A stretch of DNA of 32,968 nt from Tetragenococcus sp. (GTDB lineage: Bacteria; Bacillota; Bacilli; Lactobacillales; Enterococcaceae): NCBI GenBank assembly GCA_030462125.1, contig JAKDZT010000008.1:1-32968 (forward strand), read 5' to 3'. Shown one piece after another: positions 2,527-29,655 of the stretch (positions within the stretch are counted from its first letter, which is position 1; each line of letters begins with the position of its first letter). The notes beneath the pieces were generated by a model, which ran no database searches, was not told the origin of the DNA, and saw only the letters and a list, made by a program, of their open reading frames with translations. Made by a program: the position numbers and the translations under genes.

Positions 2527-2792
2527 AGGACAAAAGTTCGCCAAAAAAGTGTCCTATTTGATGATATAGGACAAAAAAGGTTCAAACTATTGTCCTATTC
2601 AGCGTTTTAGGACAAAAGGTAACTAAATTAATGTCCTATATTGGTGAAAAAAGGCATTTTAGAGGCTTTTATCACGATTATAGGACAAAAGTTGTTCGAA
2701 AGAATGTCCTATTCTGAACTATAGGACAAAATAATAGCAAAGTAATGTCCTATTCTGTGCTATAGGACAAAAGTTTGCCAAATTAATGTCCT
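2527..2792. repeat. Tandem array of six inverted-repeat units, AGGACA-N17-TGTCCT, 41-bp period
   Basis: AGGACA starts at 2527, 2568, 2609, 2682, 2723 and 2764. TGTCCT starts exactly 23 bp after each (2550, 2591, 2632, 2705, 2746, 2787). Periods are 41, 41, 73, 41, 41. Confidence 0.97.
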
Positions 2793-22843: not shown

Positions 22844-22889
22844 CGCGATTGAGAGATTTAATCATAATATGAAAAGTTTTATTCGAATC

Positions 22890-23037
22890 CTACCCTAGTT
22901 TTCCTGGTTTCTAGGGTCCCTATTCTGAACCTACCCTAGATTTTTTATTTCTAGGGTCATTATTTTGAATCTACCCTAGATTTCTAATTTCTAGGGTCCC
23001 TATTTTGAATCTACCTTAGATTTCTAATTTCTAGAGC
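22890..23037. repeat. Tandem array of four inverted-repeat units, ACCCTAG-N11/12-CTAGGGT, 40-41-bp period
   Basis: CTACCCTAG at 22890, 22931, 22971, and CTACCTTAG at 23011. CTAGGGT at 22911, 22951, 22991, and degenerate CTAGAGC at 23031. Confidence 0.96.
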
Positions 23038-23205
23038 TACTTTCAAGAAACGCTCTCCATCTTTTGAAAAATAAGGGGCGTTGCCATTAGTAGCTGTCAC
23101 GATCTAATTACAAATAACGACTTTTTTTCCTCACTACTACAAGCCTTGATAAATTTTACACTTTACATACATTAAGCAAAAGTTCCCTTGTTGAATGCGC
23201 GGGTC

Positions 23206-28404: not shown

Positions 28405-29655
28405 ATGGAAAATCAATTCCTGCCAGAAATTTGGCAGCAAAGAGCAACATCAGCAGGCTTTGAGCAAGCAACTTTGATACAAGAAAGAGTTTTTTCTGAT
28501 CTATATCAAGGAAAAAGCCTTGTCGGCGTCGCCCCCACCGGGACCGGCAAGACATTAGCTTACCTGTGGCCAACACTTTTAAAAATTCAAGCAGGACATG
28601 GGAACCAATTACTCATTGTGACGCCTTCCCAAGAATTAGGCGTGCAAGTTGCTGATGTCGCACGAACCTGGGCAACAGATTTGGGGTTGCAAGTACAATC
28701 GCTCATTGGTGGAGCGAATAAGAAAAGACAAGTCGAAAAATTAAAAGCTAAACCTGAAGTACTTATTGGAACGCCCGGTCGTCTTGTAGAATTAATGAAA
28801 GATAAAAAGGTGAAGGCAGCGCATATACAAACGGTCATTTTAGATGAAGCCGATCAACTATTACAAAAAGAAGCGGTCGGCTTTATGCAATCGATCATTA
28901 AAAGTATTCCGAAAACCAGTCAGTATGCTTTCTTTTCTGCTACCGGAACAAAAGCTTTACCGATGATTAAGCAAGTATTTCAACAAGATCTACCGGTGAT
29001 CGATGTAACAAAAGAAGACGATAGCCATCAACAAGTTGCGCATTATTATTTGGTTTATCCTGCCAGAAGAACCGTAGATGCTTTGAGAAGGTTGGGTAAC
29101 GTGGCCGATTTTCAAGGGCTGGTCTTTTTTAACGAAGTACAAGATTTAGGTAGTGCGACAGAAAAGTTACAGTATCATCAGTTGCCGGTAGCTAGTTTAG
29201 CCTCGGACCAATCTAAGATGATGCGTAAACAAGCTTTGGTGAATTTTCGTCAGCAAAAACTGGTCGAATTATTGACGACAGACGTTGCTTCTCGTGGACT
29301 GGATATTGAAGATTTGTACTATGTGGTGAATGCAGAAGTGCCTAATTCTCAGGATAGTTACCTACATCGCGCGGGCCGTATTGGACGCATGGGAAAGGCA
29401 GGTGCTGTAATTACCATCGTGCAAGAAAGTACCTTGCCGGGACTAAAAAAAATCGCAAAAAGCTTAAATTTACCCCTACAAGAGGTTTATTTGCACGGGG
29501 GCAGCCTAACTACTGAAAAGCCTATAACGCAACCAGATCCGGAAAAATCCAAAGCAAAGAAAACAAGCAAAAATAAGCCGAAGAAGCCGAAAAAGGCAAA
29601 GAAAAAGCAAAAGAATAAAGGCGCTCCTAAAAATAAGACTTCTTCTAAAAGTTAA
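28405..29655 (+). CDS. DEAD-box RNA helicase with Lys-rich C-terminal tail
   Basis: VAPTGTGKTLAYLWP, GTPGRLVELM, LDEADQLL, FFSATGT, LLTTDVASRGLDIEDLYYVVN, HRAGRIGRMG. Confidence 0.96.
   Translation: MENQFLPEIWQQRATSAGFEQATLIQERVFSDLYQGKSLVGVAPTGTGKTLAYLWPTLLKIQAGHGNQLLIVTPSQELGVQVADVARTWATDLGLQVQSLIGGANKKRQVEKLKAKPEVLIGTPGRLVELMKDKKVKAAHIQTVILDEADQLLQKEAVGFMQSIIKSIPKTSQYAFFSATGTKALPMIKQVFQQDLPVIDVTKEDDSHQQVAHYYLVYPARRTVDALRRLGNVADFQGLVFFNEVQDLGSATEKLQYHQLPVASLASDQSKMMRKQALVNFRQQKLVELLTTDVASRGLDIEDLYYVVNAEVPNSQDSYLHRAGRIGRMGKAGAVITIVQESTLPGLKKIAKSLNLPLQEVYLHGGSLTTEKPITQPDPEKSKAKKTSKNKPKKPKKAKKKQKNKGAPKNKTSSKS

What the first reader, a model, noticed from the sequence alone, without database searches (positions are those of the whole stretch)
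22919..22930. The two arrays share an exact 12-nt spacer (CCTATTCTGAAC) and nearly the same period despite unrelated stems
CCTATTCTGAAC occurs at 2708-2719 in array 1 and at 22919-22930 in array 2. In both it sits between the right arm of one unit and the left arm of the next. Other array 2 spacers read TATTTTGAATC and other array 1 spacers read CTATTCTGTGC or CTATTCAGC. Two loci 20 kb apart thus share architecture (inverted arms, 40/41-bp period) and spacer sequence, but have different internally complementary arms (AGGACA/TGTCCT versus ACCCTAG/CTAGGGT). This suggests one family in which stem identity is locus-specific and homogenised within an array, while the spacer is the conserved family signature.
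Basis: partly seen in the sequence, partly recalled or inferred. Interest (0 to 1): 0.8.

Follow-up and report, generated by a model that had tools for sequence, protein, structure and literature searches.

The report
Phased tandem-palindrome arrays between Tetragenococcus genes
The 12-base "shared spacer" is most likely a coincidence, but the two arrays do belong to a class of short repeats between genes in Tetragenococcus, in which at least five unrelated palindrome sequences all repeat every 40-42 bases, as if read by proteins that need them on one face of the DNA helix.

Summary
The 12-mer CCTATTCTGAAC is at 2708 and 22919 as stated, but the interpretation built on it fails. Dinucleotide shuffles of the two arrays share 12 or more bases in 2.3% of trials. 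The registers differ: CCT is arm in array 1 and spacer in array 2. A third copy lies outside any array. Other copies of the array-2 family read CTTTTCTGAACC, so the motif arose separately there. Arms, not spacers, are the signature. AGGACA/TGTCCT recurs at about ten loci per genome in three Tetragenococcus species, with unrelated spacer sequences of fixed length (17 and 12). At least five stem families share a 40-42 bp period: 11 of 12 arrays in 1.15 Mb of Tetragenococcus, 0 of 2 in 0.57 Mb of other Bacilli. Two families with unrelated arms also share a plan of three units, an arm-less centre of fixed length, and three units. Array 2 is the inner array of a dispersed MITE-like element. Near-absent arm covariation and fixed spacer lengths favour phased protein-binding DNA over RNA hairpins. 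No binding protein was identified.

The parts
2527..2555 (+). Array 1 (family F1), unit 1: AGGACA-17-TGTCCT
2568..2596 (+). Array 1, unit 2
2609..2637 (+). Array 1, unit 3
2638..2681 (+). Array 1 centre: 44 bp without arms (12 + 32 bp), A-tract AAAAAA; same length at five of six other F1 copies examined in this genome, 43 at the sixth (L128)
2682..2710 (+). Array 1, unit 4; its right arm TGTCCT (2705-2710) supplies the CCT of the reported 12-mer
2723..2751 (+). Array 1, unit 5
2764..2792 (+). Array 1, unit 6; ends 55 bp before hom
22882..23163 (+). Left-truncated copy of the dispersed MITE-like F2 element; its right end (about 23085-23163) is shared with other copies
22892..22917 (+). Array 2 (family F2), unit 1: ACCCTAG...CTAGGGT
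22918..22932 (+). Array 2 spacer holding the reported 12-mer (22919-22930)
22933..22957 (+). Array 2, unit 2
22973..22997 (+). Array 2, unit 3
23013..23037 (+). Array 2, unit 4, degenerate arms (ACCTTAG...CTAGAGC)

Best explanation
Shown: both arrays belong to a class of intergenic tandem palindromes in Tetragenococcus. The class has several stem families (AGGACA/TGTCCT, CTAGGGT/ACCCTAG, GAGTAA/TTACTC, CCACCAAT/ATTGGTGG, GTTCATTC/GAATGAAC), each at several loci, all with a 40-42 bp period. In the AGGACA family, examined most closely, arms are conserved while loops and spacers are saturated in sequence and fixed in length. Inferred: each arm is a half-site for a DNA-binding protein. Half-sites of about 15 bp alternate in orientation roughly every 20 bp (two helical turns), so a pair takes about four turns and all dimers lie on one face of the DNA. 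The arm-less centre of the AGGACA and GAGTAA families adds 32 or 42 bp (three or four turns) and so keeps that face. The arrays change by whole units and behave as non-autonomous BOX/BIME-like repeats tolerated mainly beyond gene ends. The likeliest binder is either the enzyme that spreads them or a chromosome-architecture protein. The shared 12-mer is coincidence.
For: A scan open to any period from 20 to 75 bp found 12 tandem hairpin arrays in 1.15 Mb of Tetragenococcus DNA, 11 of them at 40, 41 or 42 bp and covering five stems; 0.57 Mb of 30 other Bacilli gave two, at 32 and 72 bp. Shuffled controls gave none. The AGGACA pattern gives 34, 57 and 54 matches in the window's genome, T. muriaticus and G103, 0-1 in 103 other genomes of the family (G102 = T. 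muriaticus) and none in 399 other Bacilli genomes. In the window's genome F1 steps are 41,41,73,41,41 at the four fully readable six-unit copies, and GAGTAA steps are 41,41,83,41,41 in the window's genome and in two T. halophilus-group genomes. Loops are 17 nt in 37 of 38 cases while their inner 13 nt are about 41% identical between arrays. Arm covariation is minimal: 4 compensatory double changes against 38 single ones. The centre is not a consistent hairpin. Three of four F1 loci compared are occupied at the orthologous place in G103, with that species' own arm form. One exact 41-bp gain or loss separates T. muriaticus from G103. Arrays are intergenic; convergent 11 to divergent 1, against 81 to 104 in the background, P = 0.0016.
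Against: No binding protein was found, and flanking genes are ordinary housekeeping genes. Four compensatory arm changes exceed shuffling (P = 0.018), which an RNA or cruciform reading would predict. Only a few independent step sizes exist (+32, +42, 40-42), so fit to helical turns is suggestive, not a statistical test. The common period could be inherited from one ancestral array. The GTTCATTC and CCACCAAT families lack the centre.
Confidence: 0.55

Rival explanations
1. One reading: one family whose signature is the spacer CTATTCTGAAC, with locus-specific stems.
For: Exact 12-mer in both arrays; P = 0.023 by shuffling.
Against: Stems recur at many loci and spacers vary. Registers differ. Other CTAGGGT-family copies do not carry the motif. 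No other F1 x F2 comparison made shares more than 10 bases, and a third copy of the 12-mer lies outside arrays.
Confidence: 0.03
2. RNA elements: the arrays are transcribed and act as strings of mRNA hairpins, as processing or decay barriers or weak terminators at gene ends.
For: Very stable predicted fold (z -8.6). Location beyond gene ends. Some compensatory arm changes. Terminator-like hairpins on the minus strand of array 1.
Against: Arm changes are mostly uncompensated (38 single against 4 compensated). Loop length is fixed while loop sequence is free, which hairpin loops do not need. Hairpin centres are not conserved. Array 2 has no terminator-like site. No Rfam family matches the arrays.
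Confidence: 0.2
3. Neutral minisatellites: arrays made by slippage at hairpins, the common period inherited from one old array whose arms drifted; no protein involved.
For: Whole-unit gain and loss between close relatives. Expanded homogeneous arrays in T. muriaticus and G103. An almost arm-less 41-bp direct repeat exists in G103.
Against: Does not explain why arms stay conserved while loops saturate, why arm sequence is shared genome-wide at loci with unrelated loops, or the fixed three-centre-three plan in two families.
Confidence: 0.2

Closest known systems
BOX elements of Streptococcus pneumoniae (boxA-boxB(n)-boxC; PMC3049150)
   Same: Intergenic, enriched between convergent genes, a tandem array of short units of variable number within a dispersed element. 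The F2 element of array 2 (conserved ends around 40-bp units) is built the same way.
   Different: Sequence homology was not tested. Several unrelated unit families here share one period. F1 and GAGTAA elements have no end modules but a fixed three-centre-three plan.
REP/BIME elements with RAYT transposases (PMC2817692)
   Same: Extragenic palindromes, regularly spaced, in mosaics; species-specific sequence.
   Different: No cognate RAYT: the window's genome has only a broken Y1 transposase, and T. halophilus has six Y1 genes but no AGGACA arrays. REP head not identified.
EFAR repeats of Enterococcus faecalis (from memory; the paper is not in the library)
   Same: Small composite palindromic repeats in the same family of bacteria.
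   Different: EFAR as recalled is a mosaic of about 170 bp; a phased 41-bp series is not described. Not compared by sequence.
CRISPR arrays
   Same: Palindromic repeats separated by fixed-length variable sequence.
   Different: Spacers of 12-17 nt, no cas association seen, many loci with common arms, loops similar within expanded arrays.

Membership tests
REP/BIME with RAYT | Extragenic palindromic units in regular arrays | tested here: met
   All F1-F4 arrays placed lie between predicted genes; one F5 array falls within a predicted ORF of the crude caller
REP/BIME with RAYT | Cognate Y1 (RAYT) gene flanked by the repeats and correlating with their number | tested here: not met
   Y1 counts do not follow AGGACA array counts; own copy broken
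BOX-like composite element | Conserved end modules around a variable number of tandem inner units | tested here: met
   F2 element (array 2): conserved ends seen among the nine copies laid out, some truncated; inner 40-bp units variable in number; no end modules seen for F1 or GAGTAA
BOX-like composite element | Sequence homology to boxA/B/C | not tested
   BOX sequences were not at hand
MITE (F2 element only) | Target-site duplication and empty sites | tested here: inconclusive
   8-bp candidate duplications at two copies read by eye (ATCATAGC, ACCCCTAT); shorter orthologous intergenic regions without it in G103 and T. halophilus
MITE (F2 element only) | Terminal inverted repeats matching a resident IS | not tested
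   Only an imperfect inverted repeat of about 22 bp seen by eye
Intrinsic terminator array | Hairpin followed by a T run on the transcribed strand | tested here: not met
   Three weak sites on the minus strand of array 1 only, antisense to hom; none in array 2
Known RNA family | Match to an Rfam model | tested here: not met
   Only a tRNA in the window
CRISPR | Unique spacers of about 26-72 nt beside cas genes | tested here: not met
   Spacers of 12-17 nt; flanking genes are housekeeping

The most novel reading that the evidence does not exclude
A re-programmable DNA-binding system: several paralogous proteins in one genus, each reading its own palindrome but all assembling on the same geometry (half-sites every two helical turns, three dimers - bend - three dimers), so that new specificities arise while the architecture is kept.
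Probability: 0.2. Interest if true: 0.8.

Novelty: new variant of a known kind. Interest (0 to 1): 0.55.

Why it matters
Interspersed palindromic repeats are common in bacteria, but unrelated sequences that share one period and one three-centre-three plan point to a geometric constraint rather than sequence descent alone. A pull-down with two arrays of different stems would test whether a family of related proteins reads them. That would give a clean case for how repeat-binding systems change specificity, and for whether such repeats are parasites or chromosome architecture.

Tried and rejected
Spacer as family signature: rejected. Locus-specific stems: rejected. RAYT mobilisation: no correlation. 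Phage or plasmid origin: no match to the AGGACA series in viral contigs, none of array 1 in plasmids. Widespread in Bacilli: the AGGACA series is absent from 399 other genomes; the Jeotgalicoccus array with AGGAC arms is a single locus with different arm spacing. Conserved central hairpin: notable for only two of thirteen centres. Self-regulated protein beside its own array: ten flanking proteins are housekeeping enzymes and transporters. Covariation as proof of RNA structure: weak, inner palindrome 4 compensatory changes (P = 0.018), outer palindrome 1. The literature searches found no description of these arrays in Tetragenococcus within the open-access library.

Full report
What was claimed and what is there. 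The window is contig C284 of a 2.44-Mb draft genome whose hom gene product is 68-71% identical to Tetragenococcus orthologues. CCTATTCTGAAC is exactly at 2708-2719 and 22919-22930, inside arrays with periods 41 and 40. Laid out by arms, array 1 is six units AGGACA-17-TGTCCT separated by 12 nt, with a 44-nt gap between units 3 and 4. Array 2 is four units ACCCTAG...CTAGGGT, the last degenerate. In array 1 the CCT of the 12-mer is part of the arm; in array 2 it lies in the spacer.

Is the 12-mer more than chance? Marginally at best. Dinucleotide shuffles of both arrays give a common word of 12 or more in 2.3% of 1000 trials, before allowing for the choice of motif. None of the 14 comparisons of array 1 or array 2 with other copies of the opposite family exceeds 10. 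A third exact copy lies at L065:3241 outside any array. Other copies of array 2's family read CACTTTTCGAATCC, CCCTTTTTGGATCC and TTACTTTTCTGAACC at that place, so the array-2 version is a private variant of its own family. I read the match as coincidence.

Array 2 belongs to a dispersed element. Sequence downstream of array 2 matches further loci of the same genome. The full copies have a conserved left end (GTTTTAAGTTATAAAGGTGT...), a variable number of 40-bp CTAGGGT units and a conserved right end (...CCTCAATAAATTTTACACTTA). Two copies show candidate 8-bp target duplications by eye. G103 and a T. halophilus-group genome have shorter orthologous regions without it, and G101 has it at one shared site. 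This is a BOX- or MITE-like build.

Array 1 is one of many copies of a discrete element. The pattern AGGACA-TGTCCT-AGGACA finds 34 matches in this genome, 57 in G102 (which is T. muriaticus DSM 15685) and 54 in G103, with 0-1 in 103 other genomes of the family and a zero control in these three. It is absent from 399 other Bacilli genomes, viral contigs and, as a similarity search with array 1, from plasmids. Start-to-start steps are 41,41,73,41,41 at all four fully readable six-unit copies; three more fit it with an end unit degenerate or cut and, at L128, a step of 72. Arms are intact in 85% of cases, while the inner 13 nt of the loops are 41% identical between arrays and 45% within. Loop length is nevertheless 17 in 37 of 38 cases.

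Other stem families share the geometry. A stem-blind scan first limited to periods of 34-50 bp, then opened to 20-75 bp, found arrays with five stems; 11 of 12 in 1.15 Mb had periods of 40, 41 or 42. Thirty stretches of other Bacilli (0.57 Mb) gave two arrays, at 32 and 72. The GAGTAA family occurs in six of nine genomes of the genus, always at 41 bp. Its copies repeat the three-centre-three plan with steps 41,41,83,41,41. Families with CCACCAAT and GTTCATTC arms step by 41-42 and 42 without a centre. G103 also has a 41-bp direct repeat with only weak arms. The five stems are thus not locus-specific, and the common feature is spacing.

Evolution. Of four F1 loci whose flanks could be matched in G103, three are occupied there by an array with that species' arm form (CAGGACATA...TATGTCCTG), while this genome mostly uses TAGGACAAAA...TGTCCTA. 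The fourth carries a different 41-bp repeat and a group II intron instead. Upstream of hom the array is present in T. muriaticus, reduced in T. solitarius and G101 and absent in T. halophilus. Loops at orthologous places are no more alike than background. Close relatives differ by an exact 41-bp unit. Arm form therefore changes genome-wide at fixed loci while loops drift freely, which suggests a trans-acting reader or conversion between loci; this step is inference.

DNA or RNA. Among 92 distinct units, arm changes are compensated 4 times and uncompensated 38 times for the inner palindrome, and 1 and 25 times for the outer one. The centre is a hairpin in only two of thirteen cases. Fixed lengths with free sequence fit helical phasing: 41 bp is about four turns, and the centre adds 32 or 42 bp, about three or four turns. 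I prefer protein-bound DNA, but the number of independent step sizes is too small for a formal test. The strong predicted RNA fold follows from the palindromes themselves and does not decide.

Placement and partners. Of 31 arrays with both neighbours known, 11 lie between convergent genes, 19 between co-directional and 1 between divergent genes; against a background of 81, 281 and 104 the convergent/divergent contrast has P = 0.0016. BOX and RUP show the same bias (PMC3049150). Gene calls were a crude ORF picker. Y1 transposase counts do not follow array counts. Ten flanking proteins are housekeeping enzymes and transporters. The binding protein is the missing piece.

Verdict. The shared spacer should be dropped. 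What remains is a genus-restricted class of intergenic palindrome arrays with several unrelated stems and one period, a new variant of the known interspersed palindromic repeats.

Noticed in passing
L156:17803-18082 (G103): Direct tandem repeat of exactly 41 bp (ATACAACAACGAATCACAATTCCTTTGTGCTATTTGAAGTG, 6.8 copies) with only weak inverted arms, beside a group II intron reverse transcriptase, at the orthologue of an F1 locus.
   Followed up: partly
L039:4759-4882 (Jeotgalicoccus meleagridis): Single array with AGGAC/GTCCT arms and period 41 in another family of Bacilli; arm spacing differs from Tetragenococcus by 2 bp.
   Followed up: partly
L032:7329-7504, L035, L034 (T. halophilus): GTTCATTC array upstream of pgm differs in unit number between T. 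halophilus strains: five units, more, and one or two remnants.
   Followed up: partly
L127:10891-11156: Units 1 and 4, and 2 and 5, have similar loops, as if a three-unit block had been duplicated to give the three-centre-three plan.
   Followed up: no
L130:15390-15660 and L118:9668-9946: An F1 array lies directly upstream of a gyrase B/topoisomerase IV B-type gene (parE-like) in this genome and, at the orthologous site, in G103.
   Followed up: no
window 29559-29615: 30-bp tandem repeat coding the lysine-rich tail of a DEAD-box helicase; ordinary.
   Followed up: no
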